From Bernardetiaceae bacterium (GTDB lineage Bacteria; Bacteroidota; Bacteroidia; Cytophagales; Bernardetiaceae), in the NCBI GenBank assembly GCA_020832465.1, contig JAFIER010000066.1, positions 1-64,000 of the forward strand: 64,000 nt of DNA, in the 5' to 3' direction. Both the position numbers and the translations under genes were made by a program. The notes beneath the pieces were generated by a model. The model worked only from the letters and a program-made list of their open reading frames with translations. It did no database searches and was not told the origin of the DNA. This document shows, in pieces, positions 123 to 63,952 of the stretch. Each line of letters starts with the position of its first letter. Within the stretch, counting starts at the first letter, position 1.

Positions 123-197
123 CTGACAGAAATGTGGGTTCTAAAAATTTTTCCATAGCGTAGGGTTTGCAAAACCTACGCTATGGAAAATGTATTC
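123..197. repeat. Partial family 1 hairpin element
   Basis: A half hairpin (TTCTGACAGAAATG, GGTTCTAAAAATT) is followed by a near-perfect palindrome that opens TTTTCCATAGCGTAGGG and closes CCTACGCTATGGAAAATG. This is the right half of the family 1 elements described at 37549-37667. The terminal CATACTACT arm is missing. Confidence 0.7.
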
Positions 198-256
198 ATC
201 TAACCATCGGGCGGGTCTCACGACCACTTCCGAGGTTTTTGAGAAACCCTTTTTGA
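198..256 (-). repeat. Cassette-end repeat, copy 1
   Basis: On the minus strand this reads from GGGTTTCTCAAAAACCTCGG to CGCCCGATGGTTAGAT. About 46 bases are identical to 1453-1500, and the last 12 bases (CCCGATGGTTAG) recur at 2164-2175. It lies directly downstream of the gene ending at 262. A short hairpin GGTC-TCAC-GACC sits in the middle. Confidence 0.8.
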
Positions 257-5184: not shown

Positions 5185-5205
5185 TGTTAAGTATTTTGTA
5201 AAAAC

Positions 5206-5290
5206 CATACTACTAGACCTTCGCTAGCCAGAAATAACATTTCTTTGAGAAATGTTAATTCTAAGCTATGGAAAAATGTATAGTAGTATG
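5206..5290 (+). repeat. Family 1 inverted-repeat element, short copy
   Basis: The 85-bp element starts CATACTACTAGAC and ends GTATAGTAGTATG (inverted). Between them are the CGCTAGCCAG linker, the hairpin GAAATAACATTTCTTTGAG with its partner arm, and CTATGGAAAAATG. The large CCATAGC palindrome of longer copies is missing. Confidence 0.8.
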
Positions 5291-5296
5291 TGTAAA

Positions 5297-5340
5297 AACA
5301 AAAATGACATTTCTTTGAGAAATGTCATTTTTGTTTTTTT
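5297..5340. terminator. Bidirectional terminator between convergent pccB and the LysM gene
   Basis: A long perfect stem (AACAAAAATGACATTTCT and its complement) with a TTG loop is followed by seven or more T. On the other strand it is preceded by an A-run, so it can serve both genes. Its core is the same hairpin type as in the repeat elements. Confidence 0.8.
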
Positions 5341-18598: not shown

Positions 18599-18709
18599 TG
18601 GGTGCAATTCAAAACTACGCGGTTTGTGTTTGGCGGGGACACCAAACACGGCGAGAGTAGTTATTTTAAGACAATAGCTTATGCTACTGAGTAAATATGA
18701 ATTGCAACC
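18599..18709 (+). repeat. Family 3 inverted-repeat element, copy A
   Basis: The left end GGTGCAATTCAAAACTAC and right end ATGAATTGCAACC are imperfect inverted repeats. Inside is the stem GTGTTTGG...CCAAACAC flanked by GCGGTTT and GGCGAG. It lies upstream of the TRAP permease. Confidence 0.75.
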
Positions 18710-21397: not shown

Positions 21398-21470
21398 GGG
21401 TGTACGACAATTTTGCTAAATTATCTCGGAAATGACATTTCTGACAGAAATGTTACTTCTAAAAATTTGA
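21398..21470 (-). repeat. Family 2 element, one-ended copy
   Basis: It starts GGGTGTACGACAATTTTGCT and contains the hairpin GAAATGACATTTCTGACAG with its partner arm. On the minus strand it aligns with 55144-55213. The second terminal arm is not visible. Confidence 0.65.
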
Positions 21471-21489
21471 CATCTAATATCTTTAATGC

Positions 21490-22725: not shown

Positions 22726-23301
22726 TTATAACAGTCTGAAACTTTGACGGTGGTGTGGCGATACCCCCTTTGAGCGTATAGCCTCGCGGTGGGCTTTCGT
22801 GGGGTAGCCAACATTGCGTTCCCAAGCATAATCTGGGTAGCTCAAAGCTAAATTTTGCATATATTCGTCTCTTGCTGTTTTGGCAAGCACTGAGGCTGCT
22901 GCAATAGATAAAAACCGTGCATCGCCTTTTATCAAACAAGTGTGTGGCACGTCTGTTTGATTATAAAAACGATTACCATCGACAAGCAGATAAGCTGGGC
23001 GAAGCTCAAGCTGTGCTACGGCACGGTTCATAGCCAAAAAAGAGGCTTGTAAAATATTGATTTTATCGATTTCTTGCGGGCTTACATGCACAACGGCATA
23101 AGCTAATGCTACGGCTTCTATTTCTTGTTTTAAAATATTACGCCATTTGAGCGAGAGTATTTTCGAGTCATTGAGTTTTGCATTTTGATAATCAGGCGGA
23201 AGAATAACTGCCGCTGCTGTTACAGGACCCGCAAGTGCGCCTCGTCCAGCTTCATCTGTACCCGCCTCGGGATACTTACCGCTATAATTTGAAATAAGCA
23301 A
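22726..23301 (-). CDS. rnhB: Ribonuclease HII
   Basis: The 191-aa protein carries all RNase HII marks: GTDEAGRGALAGPVTAAAVI (two acidic residues), LNDSKILS, LLVDGN and the downstream KGDARFLSIAAASVLAKTAR. It removes RNA from RNA-DNA hybrids and single ribonucleotides from DNA. It starts 12 bp after the biotin carrier gene's stop on the same strand, so the two are co-transcribed. Confidence 0.95.
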   Translation of the reverse strand: MLISNYSGKYPEAGTDEAGRGALAGPVTAAAVILPPDYQNAKLNDSKILSLKWRNILKQEIEAVALAYAVVHVSPQEIDKINILQASFLAMNRAVAQLELRPAYLLVDGNRFYNQTDVPHTCLIKGDARFLSIAAASVLAKTARDEYMQNLALSYPDYAWERNVGYPTKAHREAIRSKGVSPHHRQSFRLL

Positions 23302-23867: not shown

Positions 23868-23991
23868 CATACTACTATACATTATCGCCTGTCAAAACCA
23901 ACATTTCTTTGAGCAATATTAGTGCTAAGCTACTTTTTATATATCGTGGGGCTTGCAAAGCCTACAATATGGAAAAAGATATAACAGTATG
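23868..23991 (+). repeat. Family 1 inverted-repeat element, diverged copy
   Basis: It starts CATACTACTATACATT and ends ATATAACAGTATG. A weakened hairpin (AACATTTCTTTGAGCAATAT) and the palindrome with GTGGGGCTTGCAAAGCC lie between. The palindrome ends read ATATCG and CAATAT where other copies have AGCG and CGCT. Confidence 0.75.
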
Positions 23992-27226: not shown

Positions 27227-27351
27227 CATACTGATAGACATTTAGCAATCAGAACTAACATTTCTTAGAGAAATGTTAGTTCTAAGCTCATTTTTCCATA
27301 GCCTGTGGGGGGGGGCAACCCCCACGCTATGGAAAAATGTATAGTGTTATG
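27227..27351 (+). repeat. Family 1 inverted-repeat element, full copy
   Basis: It starts CATACTGATAGACATTT and ends AATGTATAGTGTTATG. It has the perfect hairpin AGAACTAACATTTCT-TAG with its complement (27251-27283) and the large palindrome (CCATAGC...GCTATGG) with a nine-G run in the left arm. It lies in the leader region of purE. Confidence 0.82.
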
Positions 27352-28208: not shown

Positions 28209-28632
28209 GCTTTGAAGTGATTTTCTTGTATGTGATAAAATGTTGAATGTATGGTTTTCCGATGCCCTCTTTTTTTTAAGGCGCAGGCATAACTCGATTT
28301 CAAAGTTAAGATATTTTTATAAAAAAAGTAAGTATTGCGCCATTTTTCCGCTATATATTCAAATAAACCATTGCAGATTTACTATCATAAGCCATACTAT
28401 TAGATATTTCCCAGATAGGAATGACATTTCTCAAAGAAATGTCGTTTCTAAGCCCATTTTTCCATAACGCTATGGAAAAATGTACAGTAGTATGATCATA
28501 AGCAGAAAATACAGCACTTTTTGGGCTACTTACATGCCCTTTTATAAATTATTGTTTACCTTTGCTCATATTGACAAAGCTCAAGACAAACAATACTTTT
28601 ACCTTTATTACCTTCAAATGTAAAATATAACT
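28209..28632. other. Divergent region between fabI and the exonuclease gene
   Basis: It contains a family 1 element (28393-28494). A palindromic stretch follows (ATTGTTT at 28551-28557 with AAACAAT at 28588-28594; CTTTG at 28560-28564 with CAAAG at 28575-28579) overlapping a TACCTTTG box. A TTG at 28571-28573 and TACTTTTA at 28594-28601, 20 bases apart, may be the exonuclease promoter. Confidence 0.45.
28393..28494 (+). repeat. Family 1 inverted-repeat element with shortened palindrome
   Basis: It starts CATACTATTAG and ends GTACAGTAGTATG. The hairpin reads GGAATGACATTTCT...AGAAATGTCGTTTCT. The large palindrome has shrunk to CCATAACGCTATGG, which suggests deletion of its centre. Confidence 0.8.
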
Positions 28633-35069: not shown

Positions 35070-35227
35070 CATTCAATTTGAGCAAGATTCGTACTGGATT
35101 TTACGTTTAATTTTAGAAATAACATTTCTGCCAGAAATGTTATTTCTAAAATTCGGTGCTCAATATCTATTATGGCCGTGTTTGGGGTCCCCACCAAACA
35201 CAAACCGCATAGTTTTGCATTGCACCC
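35070..35227 (-). repeat. Family 3 element, copy B, with an inserted hairpin
   Basis: On the minus strand it begins GGGTGCAATGCAAAACTATG and carries GCGGTTTGTGTTTGGTGGGG with CCAAACACGG, closely matching 18599-18709. A perfect hairpin (ATTTTAGAAATAACATTTCT with its complement, about 35114-35154) follows, then a weak right arm AAATTGAATGC. Confidence 0.72.
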
Positions 35228-35282
35228 GTTCTAATCTAAAGCGAATAGCTAAGGGTGTGGTAAAACAACTAATTTCAAAAGA

Positions 35283-37548: not shown

Positions 37549-37667
37549 CATACTACTATCGCTAGCCAGAAATAACATGTCTCAAAGAAATGTTATTTCT
37601 AAGCCCATTTTTCCATAGCGTGGGGTTTGCAAACCCCACGCTATGGAAAAATGCATATAGTGGTACG
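37549..37667 (+). repeat. Family 1 inverted-repeat element, best full copy
   Basis: In order: CATACTACTAT, linker CGCTAGCCAG, hairpin AAATAACATGTCT...AGAAATGTTATTT, linker CTAAGCCCATTTTT, perfect palindrome CCATAGCGTGGGGTTT...AAACCCCACGCTATGG, and the inverted end ATATAGTGGTACG. It is 119 bp with no coding capacity and serves as the reference copy for the family. Confidence 0.85.
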
Positions 37668-37688: not shown

Positions 37689-37752
37689 GTGTGCATTTCA
37701 AAACTACTTAGTTGGTGTTTGGTGCGGACACCAAACACAGCGAATGCTACTA
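37689..37752 (+). repeat. Family 3 element, copy C
   Basis: GTGCATTTCAAAACTACTTAG, then GTGTTTGGTGCGGACACCAAACAC type stem and AGCGAATGCTACTAT. The right arm is weak. Confidence 0.65.
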
Positions 37753-38140: not shown

Positions 38141-38195
38141 TAAACACCAGTGCTTTTTTATTATTTCAGCAGGTGTCTGTCTGTTTATGGGCTTA
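38141..38195 (-). repeat. Dispersed repeat, copy C
   Basis: On the minus strand it opens TAAGCCCATAAACAGACAGA and closes AAAAAAGCACTGGTGTTTA. Matches 17130-17183 and 3373-3425. Confidence 0.75.
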
Positions 38196-38196
38196 G

Positions 38197-38228
38197 GAAT
38201 AACATTTCTTTGAGAAATGTTATTTCTA
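38197..38228. terminator. Hairpin downstream of the STAS-like gene
   Basis: GGAATAACATTTCT-TTG-AGAAATGTTATTTCT, 8 bp past the stop of the minus-strand gene. It is the common hairpin module and may act as its terminator. Confidence 0.5.
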
Positions 38229-38235
38229 TATGGGA

Positions 38236-38667: not shown

Positions 38668-39107
38668 AGCATCGTTATTTAGGTATTGTATTGTATTTTA
38701 GCAAATGTTTTTCACTGTATTTATGATTTGTCTTTGAACATAAATCTAAGATAATACAATCTTTTGTAAAAGCCAAAATTTGCGCCGCTTTGTATAAAAA
38801 CAAAAAAGCAAGACAAGAAAAAAAATGTGCAGGCGGTAATCTTCTTATTTTTCAGGGCACAAGTCATAGAAATAATATTTCTGAGATAATTTAGCAAAAT
38901 TGTCGTACACCCGCTGACTTCACTACAAACCCTACGCTATGGAAAAATGTATAGTGGTATGATTTTTTATGAACCTGCCCTGCTTTAATCATATAACTTT
39001 CTCTTATTTAAGGTTTGTTAAAAGTAAAAACTTTGTAGTTTGTGTGAATAGCTATTATATTTGTAGAAAATATGAGCAAACAATTTTATACACACACAAA
39101 AGCAATT
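38668..39107. other. Divergent region before icd
   Basis: It holds the right half of a family 1 element (ACGCTATGGAAAAATG to ATAGTGGTATG, ending 38961), fused to a family 2 end (AATTTAGCAAAATTGTCG at about 38888-38905, then TACACCC), and the icd promoter. No gene is seen. Confidence 0.6.
39032..39063 (+). promoter_or_regulatory. Promoter of icd
   Basis: TTTG at 39032-39035, 20 bases, TATATTTG at 39056-39063. Transcription should begin near 39070. The in-frame ATG at 39072 would then be almost leaderless, so the ATG at 39108 is favoured. Confidence 0.75.
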
Positions 39108-40829: not shown

Positions 40830-40931
40830 GGTAGTGTATAACAAGTAATGCTTAGAACTAACAGTTCTTTGAGAACTGTTAGTTTTGAAAGACTTTGAGC
40901 ATTACATCTTTAAGACTACCGCAATTCGTAT
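40830..40931. repeat. Nested hairpin element in a gene leader
   Basis: The outer arms are GCAATTCGGGTAGT and ACTACCGCAATTCG (imperfect). The middle arms are GTAATGCT and AGCATTAC (perfect). The inner hairpin is AACTAACAGTTCT-TTG-AGAACTGTTAGTT. Its inner module matches the other families; the outer ends are unique here. Confidence 0.65.
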
Positions 40932-47227: not shown

Positions 47228-47287
47228 CATACTAATAGACATTTTCTATTCAGAAATAACATTTCTGTCAGAAATGTTATTTCTATA
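47228..47287 (+). repeat. Family 1 element, left half
   Basis: CATACTAATAGACATTTT, then the perfect hairpin AGAAATAACATTTCT-GTC-AGAAATGTTATTTCT. The right half is replaced by a family 2 end (GATTTACCAACTTGACGTAC) at about 47304-47323. Confidence 0.65.
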
Positions 47288-47346
47288 AGTTCTGACACTA
47301 CCTAAGTCGATTTACCAACTTGACGTACACCCCAAAAACAATAAAT

Positions 47347-55070: not shown

Positions 55071-55135
55071 CTGTAGTAACGAAGCAAGCCACTTCCAAAG
55101 TTGGAGCTTCGGGCTACAGTTTTTAGAAACTGTGA
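55071..55135. repeat. GAAGCTCCAG hairpin element, copy B
   Basis: CTGTAGTAACGAAGC, then AGCCACTTCC and GGAGCTTCGGGCTACAG. It matches 21490-21565 but lacks about 15 bases of the left arm. Confidence 0.65.
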
Positions 55136-55143
55136 AGGCTGAA

Positions 55144-55213
55144 ATTATCTCGGAAATAACATTTCTGAAAGATGTGTTATTTCTAAAAATTTAGCAAAAT
55201 TGTCATACACCCC
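55144..55213 (+). repeat. Family 2 element
   Basis: TTATCTCGGAAATAACATTT, the hairpin partner GTGTTATTTC, then AATTTAGCAAAATTGTCATA and CACCC. Homologous to the minus strand of 21398-21470. Confidence 0.65.
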
Positions 55214-59720: not shown

Positions 59721-59777
59721 TCTTAGAAATCATATATATCAAAGATTATCTCGTTTGTTTTTCTACATCATGCATAA

Positions 59778-59801
59778 GTGTTTGGCGCTGACACCAAACA
59801 C
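59778..59801. repeat. Family 3 stem, isolated
   Basis: GTGTTTGG and CCAAACAC around CGCTGACA. The flanks of the full family 3 elements are absent. Confidence 0.6.
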
Positions 59802-59881
59802 GGCAAGTTTTCTTGTATTATTTAAACGTGATAATGCCTATTAAAAAAAATTATTTCTGACTTACAATGCTTACCTACTTA

Positions 59882-61153: not shown

Positions 61154-63952
61154 ATGAGTTCAAATGAAGCTACAATGAACAAAGACAACATTATATCATA
61201 CCTACACCCCAAAACATTACGAGGACGCGTCGTGCTCGGATTTTTTGTGATTGCCATATCCGTAATCAGTGTGCTCGGATTTTACCTCGTGTATATGCAA
61301 AAGCAGGTGCTTTCGCAATATAACTATACTGTATATAACACAGTACCAACACGTTTTTATTGTAAAGTCATCGAAAACTGCATTACAGGCTCTACTAATG
61401 CCATGGATAACTATTTAGCCACCGACGAGGAAAGCCATCGTGATGAACGCAATGCAATATGGGAAGAGTGCCTAAATGCCATGGATTCACTCTCAAACTA
61501 CACAAACACTTGGAGAGAGGCTTCTGTTACAGCGCTTGTGTACGACGTAAGAATTAAAGCGAATAGACTTAGAGATAAGCAAAATCAAGTTGAAGAGCAA
61601 CATTTTAGGCTAAGAAGCAATCTAAGCGAAGAATCACGCTCTGAAAGAAGCAGGCAAGTAGGGCAAGTAAAAGTATTAGTCGACGATATTAAAGCCGTGT
61701 TAGACCTCATTGTCAATATTCAAAAAGAAGAGATTAATAGAACCCAAATGCAGATAGATCAAAATATCTATTTGCTTTATGGCACTATAACGCCCGTGAT
61801 CTTAGCCCTACTCATCTTACTTTTTGTTTATGTTGCCTATAAAATCAATAGCAGGCTTAGCTATCGCCTCGCAGTCTTGAATCATAACCTCAGTGAAATC
61901 AAAAAAGGCGAATTGCCTACTGTCAAAGAATACGAAAACGACGAAATTAGTGATGTACTCGAGCTTAGTAACGATATTACAGAAGACCTCAAAGAGCTCA
62001 AAAACTTTGCTATAGAAGTCGGTAAGAAAAATTTTGATACCCCTTTTAAAGCATTTGAAAAAGAAGGAGAACTCGGGCAAGCTTTTCATTATATGAGAGA
62101 TAGCCTCAAAAATATAGCCGAGAAGGATAAGAAAACCAATTGGGCTATATCGGGAGAAGCGTATTTTTCTAACCTATTACAAGAAAATACCAAAGACCTC
62201 GACGTGCTCTGCCAAAAATTTGTCAGTGCATTGATGCAATATGTCGATGCTAACCACGCCGCCATATATATCCTAAAAGAAAGCGGTAGCCATCAATGCC
62301 TCGAGCTTAAAGCTTGGTATGCCTATGACTATCAAAAAATTCAAGAAAAAACAATAGATATTGGTGAAGGACTTGTAGGGGAAGCCTACCGTGAAAAACG
62401 AAAAATACACCTACAGCACGTACCCGAAAACTTTATTAAAGTAAGCTCTGGATTAGGAGAAAGTACGCCCAGCTCTTTGCTTGTCCTGCCTATTAAATCC
62501 ATAGATAGAGTAGAAGGTGTATTAGAATTGGCTTCTTTCAAATCTTTAGAGCCGCATCAAATCGAGTTTATAGAGCGCGTTGTCGCAAGTTTCGCCTCAA
62601 GCGTCGTCTCTGTAAAAGTCGGTTTGCGCACACAGAGGTTACTGCAAGATGCACAAACACAAGCCGAGCAGCTGCGTTCGCAAGAAGAGGAAATGAGACA
62701 AAATATGGAAGAGTTGCAGGCTACACAAGAAGAAATGCAACGCAAACAGCAAGAACTTGAAGCAGCAAAAATAACATTAGAATCTAATGAAGCTGTATTG
62801 CAACAAGCACTTGCTAAAGCTAAACAAAACGAAGCTGAAAATAAAAAATTATTGAGAGATGCCCAAATGAGAGAAGAGCAGTTGCGTGCACAAGAGGAAG
62901 AAATGAGGCAGAACATGGAAGAATTGCAAGCTACACAAGAAGAGATGCAACGAAAGCAACAAGAAATTCAAAAAGCGAAGCAAGCACTTGAAATCAACGA
63001 GCAAATATTACAAAAAGCATTACAGAAATCTAAGAAAGGTGAGGCTGAAAACAAAAAACTCTTGCAAGAAGCGCAGGAGCAAGCCGAGCAGTTGCGTGCA
63101 CAAGAGGAAGAAATGAGGCAAAACATGGAAGAGTTGCAAGCCACACAAGAGGAGCTCTACAGAAAGCAACAAGCCGAAGAGAAAAAAGCAAGGCAACTCG
63201 CTGCTAACGAAGGAATTCTTCAAAAAGCACTCGAAAGAGCAAGAGAAAAAGATATCGAGAACAAAAAACTCTTACAAGAAGCGCAGGAGCAAGCCGAGCA
63301 GTTGCGTGCACAAGAGGAAGAAATGAGGCAAAACATGGAAGAGTTGCAAGCTACACAAGAGGAGCTCTACAGAAAGCAACAAGCCGAAGAGAAAAAAGCA
63401 AGGCAACTCGCTGCTAACGAAGGAATTCTTAAAAAAGCACTCGAAAGAGCAAGAGAAAAAGATATCGAAAACAAAAAACTCTTACAAGAAGCGCAGCAGC
63501 AAGCCGAGCAGCTGCGTGCGCAAGAAGAAGAAATGAGGCAGAACATGGAAGAATTGCAAGCCACACAAGAGGAGCTTAATAGAAAGCAGCAAGCCGAAGA
63601 GAAAAAAGCTAAGAAACTCGTAGCTAATGAAGTTATACTTAAAAAAGCACTCGAAAGAGCTAGTCAAAAAGACATTGAAAATAGAAAGCTACTTCAAGAA
63701 ACGCAAATGCAAGCCGAGCAGCTGCGCGCGCAAGAAGAAGAAATGAGGCAAAACCTCGAAGAGCTACAAGCTACACAAGAAGCTATGCAAGAGCGACAAA
63801 ACGAAATCAATAAAGTTAAATCAAGGCTTGAAGCCAACGAAAAAATATTGCTTAAGAAAATTCAGCAATACAAAAGCAAAGACGAGTTGCTCAAAGCCAA
63901 AGAACAAGAAGTTCAACAACTCAAAGCAGAACTCGATAAGTACAAAAAATAA
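61154..63952 (+). CDS. Membrane sensor: HAMP, GAF and a 70-residue-repeat coiled coil
   Basis: The 932-aa protein has membrane helices near 28-48 (FFVIAISVISVLGFYLVY) and 204-230 (IYLLYGTITPVILALLILLF), with a 155-residue extracytoplasmic four-helix-type domain between. A HAMP-like linker follows (about 231-285), then a GAF domain (about 349-490: QYVDANHAAIYILKESGSH, IDIGEGLVGEAYREKRKIHL, LVLPIKSIDRVEGVLELASF). From residue 505 to the end it is pure coiled coil built of 70-residue repeats (EQLRAQEEEMRQNMEELQAT). In relatives one such unit usually leads into a PAS or kinase; here there is no output domain. It probably signals by contact with partners. Confidence 0.88.
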   Translation: MSSNEATMNKDNIISYLHPKTLRGRVVLGFFVIAISVISVLGFYLVYMQKQVLSQYNYTVYNTVPTRFYCKVIENCITGSTNAMDNYLATDEESHRDERNAIWEECLNAMDSLSNYTNTWREASVTALVYDVRIKANRLRDKQNQVEEQHFRLRSNLSEESRSERSRQVGQVKVLVDDIKAVLDLIVNIQKEEINRTQMQIDQNIYLLYGTITPVILALLILLFVYVAYKINSRLSYRLAVLNHNLSEIKKGELPTVKEYENDEISDVLELSNDITEDLKELKNFAIEVGKKNFDTPFKAFEKEGELGQAFHYMRDSLKNIAEKDKKTNWAISGEAYFSNLLQENTKDLDVLCQKFVSALMQYVDANHAAIYILKESGSHQCLELKAWYAYDYQKIQEKTIDIGEGLVGEAYREKRKIHLQHVPENFIKVSSGLGESTPSSLLVLPIKSIDRVEGVLELASFKSLEPHQIEFIERVVASFASSVVSVKVGLRTQRLLQDAQTQAEQLRSQEEEMRQNMEELQATQEEMQRKQQELEAAKITLESNEAVLQQALAKAKQNEAENKKLLRDAQMREEQLRAQEEEMRQNMEELQATQEEMQRKQQEIQKAKQALEINEQILQKALQKSKKGEAENKKLLQEAQEQAEQLRAQEEEMRQNMEELQATQEELYRKQQAEEKKARQLAANEGILQKALERAREKDIENKKLLQEAQEQAEQLRAQEEEMRQNMEELQATQEELYRKQQAEEKKARQLAANEGILKKALERAREKDIENKKLLQEAQQQAEQLRAQEEEMRQNMEELQATQEELNRKQQAEEKKAKKLVANEVILKKALERASQKDIENRKLLQETQMQAEQLRAQEEEMRQNLEELQATQEAMQERQNEINKVKSRLEANEKILLKKIQQYKSKDELLKAKEQEVQQLKAELDKYKK
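62666..63856. repeat. 210-bp tandem repeat, five full units and a partial sixth
   Basis: Units begin at 62666, 62876, 63086, 63296, 63506 and 63716, each encoding EQLR(A/S)QEEEMRQN. Units 3 and 4 differ at only about four positions, so their duplication is recent; units 1 and 6 are the most diverged. Confidence 0.9.

What the first reader, a model, noticed from the sequence alone, without database searches (positions are those of the whole stretch)
37549..37667. Family 1: a widespread modular, palindromic intergenic element
At least a dozen full or partial copies lie between genes (123, 5206, 23868, 27227, 28393, 33393, 37549, 38930, 42261, 47228, 50645, 59659). The full order is CATACTACTATAC end, a GCTAGCCAG linker, a hairpin around AAATAACATTTCT, a linker CTAAGCCCATTTTT, a long CCATAGC...GCTATGG palindrome and an inverted GTATAGTAGTATG end. 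Copies lose or swap modules, yet the ends stay inverted. This fits a miniature mobile element or a REP-like element copied by an enzyme elsewhere. None interrupts a clear gene.
Basis: partly seen in the sequence, partly recalled or inferred. Interest (0 to 1): 0.75.

Follow-up and report, generated by a model that had tools for sequence, protein, structure and literature searches.

The report
IS4-driven MITE carrying swappable palindromes
The scattered repeat is a tiny hitch-hiking transposon that is most likely moved by the enzyme of one full-size insertion sequence in the same genome, and its inside is built from palindromes that also live elsewhere in the genome, so in related species the same ends wrap different palindromes.

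Summary
The element is a MITE (non-autonomous DNA transposon), canonical length 122 bp, with at least 149 full-length copies in the 4.6-Mb genome. Of 94 two-ended copies examined, 33 are flanked by identical 9-bp direct repeats and 49 match at 8 or more of 9 positions; essentially none match at any other length (mispaired control 0.025%). One copy has an intragenomic empty site. Two identical copies lie in different targets.

The likely mobiliser was found: a single 1224-bp IS4-like insertion sequence with the same 13-bp ends (12/13), encoding an intact DDE/YREK transposase. One locus carries a hybrid transposon with one MITE end and one IS end inside a 9-bp target duplication. RAYT/REP is rejected.

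The "modules" are two hairpins whose stems covary. Hairpin H also sits in an unrelated MITE with 8-bp duplications, in a third repeat, and alone. In related species the same ends enclose other palindromes, which also occur without those ends. So constant IS4-type ends have wrapped resident palindromes repeatedly. A MITE as such is a known kind; this recurrent palindrome cargo is the unusual part. How the palindromes got inside is not shown.

The parts
37549..37667 (+). MITE copy named in the finding (119 bp; consensus 122 bp); target duplication eroded (AAAATGGGT / AAAAATAGA, 5 of 9)
   Evidence: 111.2 bits
37549..37559 (+). left terminal inverted repeat, inner part lost (CATACTACTAT)
37655..37667 (-). 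right terminal inverted repeat (ATATAGTGGTACG)
37568..37600 (.). hairpin module H (AGAAATAACATGTCT-CAA-AGAAATGTTATTTCT)
37606..37653 (.). palindrome module P (CATTTTTCCATAGCGTGGGGTTTGCAAACCCCACGCTATGGAAAAATG)
28393..28494 (+). MITE copy, 102 bp, short P; perfect 9-bp duplication ATCATAAGC at 28384-28392 and 28495-28503
5206..5290 (+). MITE copy, 85 bp, P mostly deleted; perfect 9-bp duplication TGTAAAAAC at 5197-5205 and 5291-5299
23868..23991 (+). MITE copy, 124 bp; duplication 7 of 9 (AAGATTACT / AAGATTGAT)
27227..27351 (+). MITE copy, 125 bp, duplication eroded
   Evidence: 103.9 bits
33393..33543 (-). MITE copy, P first, one end decayed
   Evidence: 83.8 bits
59659..59782 (-). MITE copy with diverged P (TCTATATTTTGGGGTTTGCAAACCCCAAAATATAGA), one end decayed
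   Evidence: 54.6 bits
104..194 (+). partial copy: half of H plus P, ends not recognisable
   Evidence: 42.4 bits
38918..38961 (+). partial copy: right half of P plus right end, beside an F2-type end
47228..47295 (+). partial copy: left end plus H, continuing into an F2-type end
38185..38235 (-). partial copy: H with the GGGCTTA linker
   Evidence: 26.5 bits

Best explanation
It is a MITE family mobilised in trans by an IS4-like (IS4Sa-type) transposase. SHOWN from sequence: 13-bp inverted ends, exact 9-bp target duplications, an intragenomic empty site, identical copies in different targets, near-exclusive intergenic placement, one intact IS with matching ends in the same genome, and one transposed hybrid that uses a MITE end on one side and that IS's end on the other. 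INFERRED: the IS transposase binds the 13-bp ends, excises or copies the unit between them and pastes it into A/T-rich 9-bp targets (consensus ATnnnnnnT). The inside is cargo made of two hairpins, H and P. They are not specific to this family: H also sits inside an unrelated 8-bp-duplication MITE (F3), a third repeat (F2) and alone, and in related species the same ends enclose other resident palindromes. So IS4-type ends have repeatedly come to flank palindromes already resident in each genome. The step by which a palindrome gets between the ends is not shown. H and P keep pairing by compensatory change, by selection on the hairpin or by palindrome-correcting repair; I cannot tell which.
For: 9-bp duplications: 33 of 94 identical and 49 of 94 at 8 or more of 9, 0-1 identical at any other length from 5 to 13, mispaired control 0.00025. 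Empty site: L104:14885-14977 lies in a repeat (duplication GTGGGAGCT/GTGGGAGGT) of which at least six other copies run uninterrupted through the same point. Identical 122-bp copies on contig C12 with different perfect duplications AAGCCAAGT and AGTTGCTTT. IS C277:26832-28055, ends CATACTACTAGAC, 384-aa ORF with PF01609 at 5.5e-22 and a complete Y-2-R-3-E-6-K motif at 271-285; NCBIfam best hit IS4_2. Hybrid unit on C194: GGTTTGGAT-[MITE]-[last 31 bp of the IS]-GGTTTGGAT. Related genus: IS with a 34-35% identical transposase, ends TACAGTACTGGACATG and exact 9-bp duplications. Same-end MITEs with 9-bp duplications but other bodies in G001 and G008; bodies of two kinds also occur without the ends. 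H census: F1 127, F2 73, F3 38, other 68; F3 has 24 of 31 identical 8-bp duplications. Covariation: 9 pairs changed on both sides, 0 of 500 shuffles, slid controls 0-3; 8 of the 9 are in H and P, 1 in the end-end helix.
Against: The IS lies at a contig end, so its own target duplication cannot be read, and only one full copy is present. IS and MITE share only the 13-bp ends, so the MITE is not a simple internal deletion of this IS. The NCBIfam IS4_2 score (149.7) is just under its cut-off (152). Transposition itself was not observed. No sister strain is held, so empty sites could only be tested within the genome.
Confidence: 0.9

Rival explanations
1. REP-type element copied by a RAYT (Y1 tyrosine transposase): the palindromes are the mobile unit and the ends are incidental.
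For: The genome has three Y1_Tnp genes; H and P are palindromes, and H occurs outside this family.
Against: The three Y1 genes are flanked by their own hairpins (for example CACCCCTTTGGGGTT and TACCCTTTAGGGTGCG), not by H, P or the ends. Exact 9-bp target duplications and inverted ends are DDE-transposon features.
Confidence: 0.03
2. A conserved regulatory RNA or terminator family kept by selection at many genes, not a mobile element.
For: Strong three-way-junction fold (z about -13) and compensatory changes in H and P.
Against: No Rfam match in the window; neighbour-gene orientation equals background (co-directional 41, divergent 21, convergent 14 against 284:117:84); 9-bp duplications and an empty site show insertion. 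A secondary effect on transcripts is not excluded.
Confidence: 0.03
3. A relic MITE whose real mobiliser has been lost; the C277 IS merely shares ends by common descent.
For: Only one IS copy against at least 149 MITE copies; MITE bodies share nothing with the IS beyond the ends; MITE ends are mostly ...CTATAC, IS ends ...CTAGAC.
Against: The IS ORF is intact; some MITE copies have the ...AGAC end; the hybrid on C194 joins a MITE end with this IS's exact end in one duplication; two copies are identical.
Confidence: 0.1

Closest known systems
Bacterial MITEs in general (RUP, NEMIS/Correia, ERIC, MITECca01 of Cardinium; PMC3733652, PMC9769881, PMC10969869)
   Same: Short, non-coding, inverted ends, intergenic, high copy number, mobilised by a resident IS, folds strongly as RNA
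   Different: MITECca01 keeps internal sequence of its parent IS982-family IS; here only the 13-bp ends match the IS and the whole inside is palindromic cargo, part of it shared with other repeat families
IS4 family, subgroup IS4Sa (PMC2266710)
   Same: Size 1150-1750 bp, ends CA------T, YREK motif, 8-10 bp duplications as tabulated there; the IS here is 1224 bp, CATACTACT, YREK present, 9 bp (duplication length read from the MITEs, the hybrid and related IS)
   Different: Best NCBIfam match just under cut-off; no tree against IS4Sa members was made. A word search of that paper's main text found no mention of MITEs
Pneumococcal BOX / RUP / SPRITE (PMC10969869)
   Same: Elements described there as clustered and inserting into one another; BOX is modular (own knowledge)
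   Different: Here one pair of IS4-type ends encloses unrelated palindromes in different species, and one hairpin is shared by MITEs with different ends and different duplication lengths
REP/BIME with RAYT (PMC2817692, PMC3733652)
   Same: High-copy intergenic palindromes; mosaic composites
   Different: Target duplications and inverted ends, and no matching RAYT

Membership tests
MITE (non-autonomous DNA transposon) | Terminal inverted repeats, short, no coding capacity | tested here: met
   13-bp ends, mostly 82-142 bp
MITE (non-autonomous DNA transposon) | Fixed-length target-site duplication | tested here: met
   9 bp, 33 of 94 identical, mispaired control 0.00025
MITE (non-autonomous DNA transposon) | Autonomous partner with the same ends in the genome | tested here: met
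   IS C277:26832-28055, ends 12/13 identical; hybrid unit on C194
MITE (non-autonomous DNA transposon) | Empty sites / insertion polymorphism | tested here: met
   Intragenomic empty site at L104:14885-14977; no sister strain held
MITE (non-autonomous DNA transposon) | Demonstrated transposition in trans | not testable with these tools
   needs an assay
IS4 family (for the mobilising IS) | DDE domain and Y-2-R-3-E-6-K motif | tested here: met
   PF01609 5.5e-22; YPLRWQIEVCFKHLK at 271-285
IS4 family (for the mobilising IS) | Curated NCBIfam family model over its cut-off | tested here: not met
   NF033591 149.7 bits, cut-off 152; filed as IS4-like rather than as a confirmed member
IS4 subgroup IS4Sa | Ends CA------T, 1150-1750 bp, 8-10 bp duplication | tested here: met
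   CATACTACT, 1224 bp; 9 bp from MITEs, the hybrid and related IS, not from the IS itself; criteria from PMC2266710
REP/RAYT | RAYT gene flanked by the same palindromes | tested here: not met

The most novel reading that the evidence does not exclude
The palindromes (H, P and their counterparts in relatives) are themselves mobile units that enter the tips of hairpins or cruciforms, so any inverted-repeat structure, such as a MITE's paired ends or a terminator, tends to acquire them. That would explain why IS4-type ends in several species, and MITEs with unrelated ends in one species, all carry resident palindromes, and why stand-alone H copies sit at the tip of locus-specific hairpins (19 of 32 with arms of at least 5 bp against 3.4 expected).
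Probability: 0.13. Interest if true: 0.75.

Novelty: new variant of a known kind. Interest (0 to 1): 0.5.

Why it matters
It ties a very abundant bacterial intergenic repeat to a specific type of enzyme, with a duplication length, an empty site and a hybrid transposon as evidence. It also suggests a reusable principle: the ends are a transposase signature, while the palindromic inside is exchangeable between MITE families and species. That gives a way to study why bacterial MITEs so often contain hairpins and where widespread Bacteroidota palindromes come from.

Tried and rejected
(1) A 1.4-kb unit on C209 with exact inverted ends first looked like an autonomous transposon; it is two separate MITE copies either side of a gene that does not look like a transposase (read by eye). 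(2) Rfam: no family in the window. (3) RAYT: rejected. (4) The other two PF01609 genes have no F1 ends. (5) Intrinsic terminator reading of P: its A/T arms place U before and A after the stem, opposite to a terminator (sequence reading). The stretches were chosen partly on contigs rich in the end motif, so copy density in the sample is not an unbiased genome estimate. (7) The genome-contig scan with the transposase gave one Phaeodactylibacter relative with no recognisable ends.

Full report
CHECK OF THE OBSERVATION. The end motif is over-represented in the window (13 against 1.2 expected) and genome-wide (341 with up to 1 mismatch against 17 in the reversed-pattern control). The element at 37549-37667 has exactly the order of parts described.

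IT IS A TRANSPOSON. In about 1.1 Mb of the genome plus the best-matching loci, 94 copies with two ends were collected. Their flanks are identical over exactly 9 bp in 33 cases and over at least 8 of 9 in 49; 0-1 are identical at any other length from 5 to 13, and mispaired flanks give 0.00025. Targets prefer A-T at positions 1-2 and T at position 9. One copy interrupts another repeat whose other copies run straight through the same point. Two identical 122-bp copies on one contig have different perfect duplications. Only 1 of 86 copies lies inside an ORF of at least 150 aa, although these cover 77% of the sample, and there is no bias in neighbour-gene orientation.

THE ENZYME. Of three PF01609 transposase genes in the genome, one lies in a 1224-bp IS with ends CATACTACTAGAC...GTCTAGTAGTATG, 12 of 13 identical to the MITE ends. 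Its 384-aa product has the DDE domain and a complete YREK signature. By the published IS4 table (PMC2266710) its size, CA------T ends, YREK motif and the 9-bp duplication read from the MITEs fit subgroup IS4Sa; the NCBIfam IS4_2 score is 149.7 against a cut-off of 152. The best link between IS and MITE is contig C194: a 9-bp duplication GGTTTGGAT encloses a MITE followed directly by the last 31 bp of the IS, including its end. The simplest reading (inference) is that a MITE had inserted near the IS end and the transposase then moved a unit using the MITE's far end and the IS's end. In the related genus, IS with a 34-35% identical transposase have ends TACAGTACTGGACATG and exact 9-bp duplications, so the duplication length belongs to this IS lineage.

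THE MODULES. Folded as RNA the element is a three-way junction: end-end stem, hairpin H, palindrome P. The stems show compensatory changes (9 pairs changed on both sides in all, 0 of 500 shuffles, slid controls 0-3); only one of these is in the end-end helix, where one position is unpaired in half of the copies. So the ends behave as protein-binding sites, while H and P are maintained as pairs, either by selection or by repair that perfects palindromes; sequence alone does not decide.

H is not private to this family. In the 1.1-Mb sample 127 H copies are in F1 (this family), 73 in repeat F2, 38 in MITE F3 and 68 elsewhere. F3 is a 91-bp MITE with unrelated ends (GGTAGTCTTAAAGATGTAATGCT) and 8-bp duplications in 24 of 31 copies. 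P is almost confined to F1 in this genome, but in relatives it occurs without F1 ends, and in G007 inside a different inverted repeat with ends GACTTTCGCAAATTC. In relatives the same IS4-type ends, with 9-bp duplications, enclose other palindromes; two of these bodies were searched and also occur without the ends (G001/G004: AGGTCAGTCCC...; G008: AACCGTCGTTGAGG...). The pattern is constant ends with exchangeable resident palindromes.

WHAT IS NOT SHOWN. Transposition was not observed. No sister strain is held. How palindromes come to lie between the ends is open: insertion of a palindrome into a MITE, IS ends arising around a palindrome, or recombination are all possible. Stand-alone H copies often sit at the tip of locus-specific hairpins (19 of 32 with arms of at least 5 bp; re-paired flanks give 3.4 on average, at most 9), which is the basis of the novel case and remains a hypothesis.

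NOVELTY. MITEs moved by an IS are well known (PMC9769881, PMC10969869). The paper searches made here found no description of this family or of IS4-type ends carrying different resident palindromes in related species; subscription literature is largely outside that library, so this is not proof of novelty.

Noticed in passing
window 40830-40920; window 23081-23171; L045:18782 and others in the sample: F3: a second, very uniform 91-bp MITE (ends GGTAGTCTTAAAGATGTAATGCT / AGCATTACTTGTTATACACTACC) with exact 8-bp duplications in 24 of 31 copies and an H-type hairpin (AACTAACAGTTCT) in the middle; its transposase was not sought.
   Followed up: partly
window 21398-21484, 55131-55211, 38868-38912; L045:9916-10066: F2: repeat family with ends GGTGTACGACAACTTTGCTAAAT / ATTTACCAACTTGACGTACACC, variable inside (H, H-like hairpins, GAAGCTCCAGCTTCG palindromes); duplication length unclear (possibly 10 bp).
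   Followed up: partly
L094:11232, L094:15885, L106:16606, L057:2402, L050:11800: Stand-alone H hairpins sit at the tip of longer, locus-specific palindromes, several of which look like terminators ending in a T run.
   Followed up: partly
L044:1466-1547, L120:6793-6874, L111:3495-3588: P-less copies read AAGCCCATTTTTG; full copies differ by the palindrome core plus one AAAAAT arm, so gain or loss of P involves an inverted copy of the neighbouring ATTTTT.
   Followed up: no
window 18602-18654, 35162-35231, 37691-37743, 59754-59806: Another dispersed palindrome, GTGTTTGGCGGGGACACCAAACAC; the copy at 37691 lies just beside the element of the finding.
   Followed up: no
window 193-239, 1446-1492, 2158-2204: A 47-bp block TAACCATCGGGCGGGTCTCACGACCACTTCCGAGG repeated beside three similar-sized minus-strand ORFs (186, 187, 186 aa).
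   Followed up: no
window 62627-63851: 210-bp tandem repeats (5-6 units) inside a 932-aa ORF (61154-63952).
   Followed up: no
L150, L151, L152: Three Y1 (RAYT/IS200-like) transposase genes, each beside its own short hairpin repeats; L151 and L152 lie next to genes that look like restriction-enzyme subunits by eye.
   Followed up: partly
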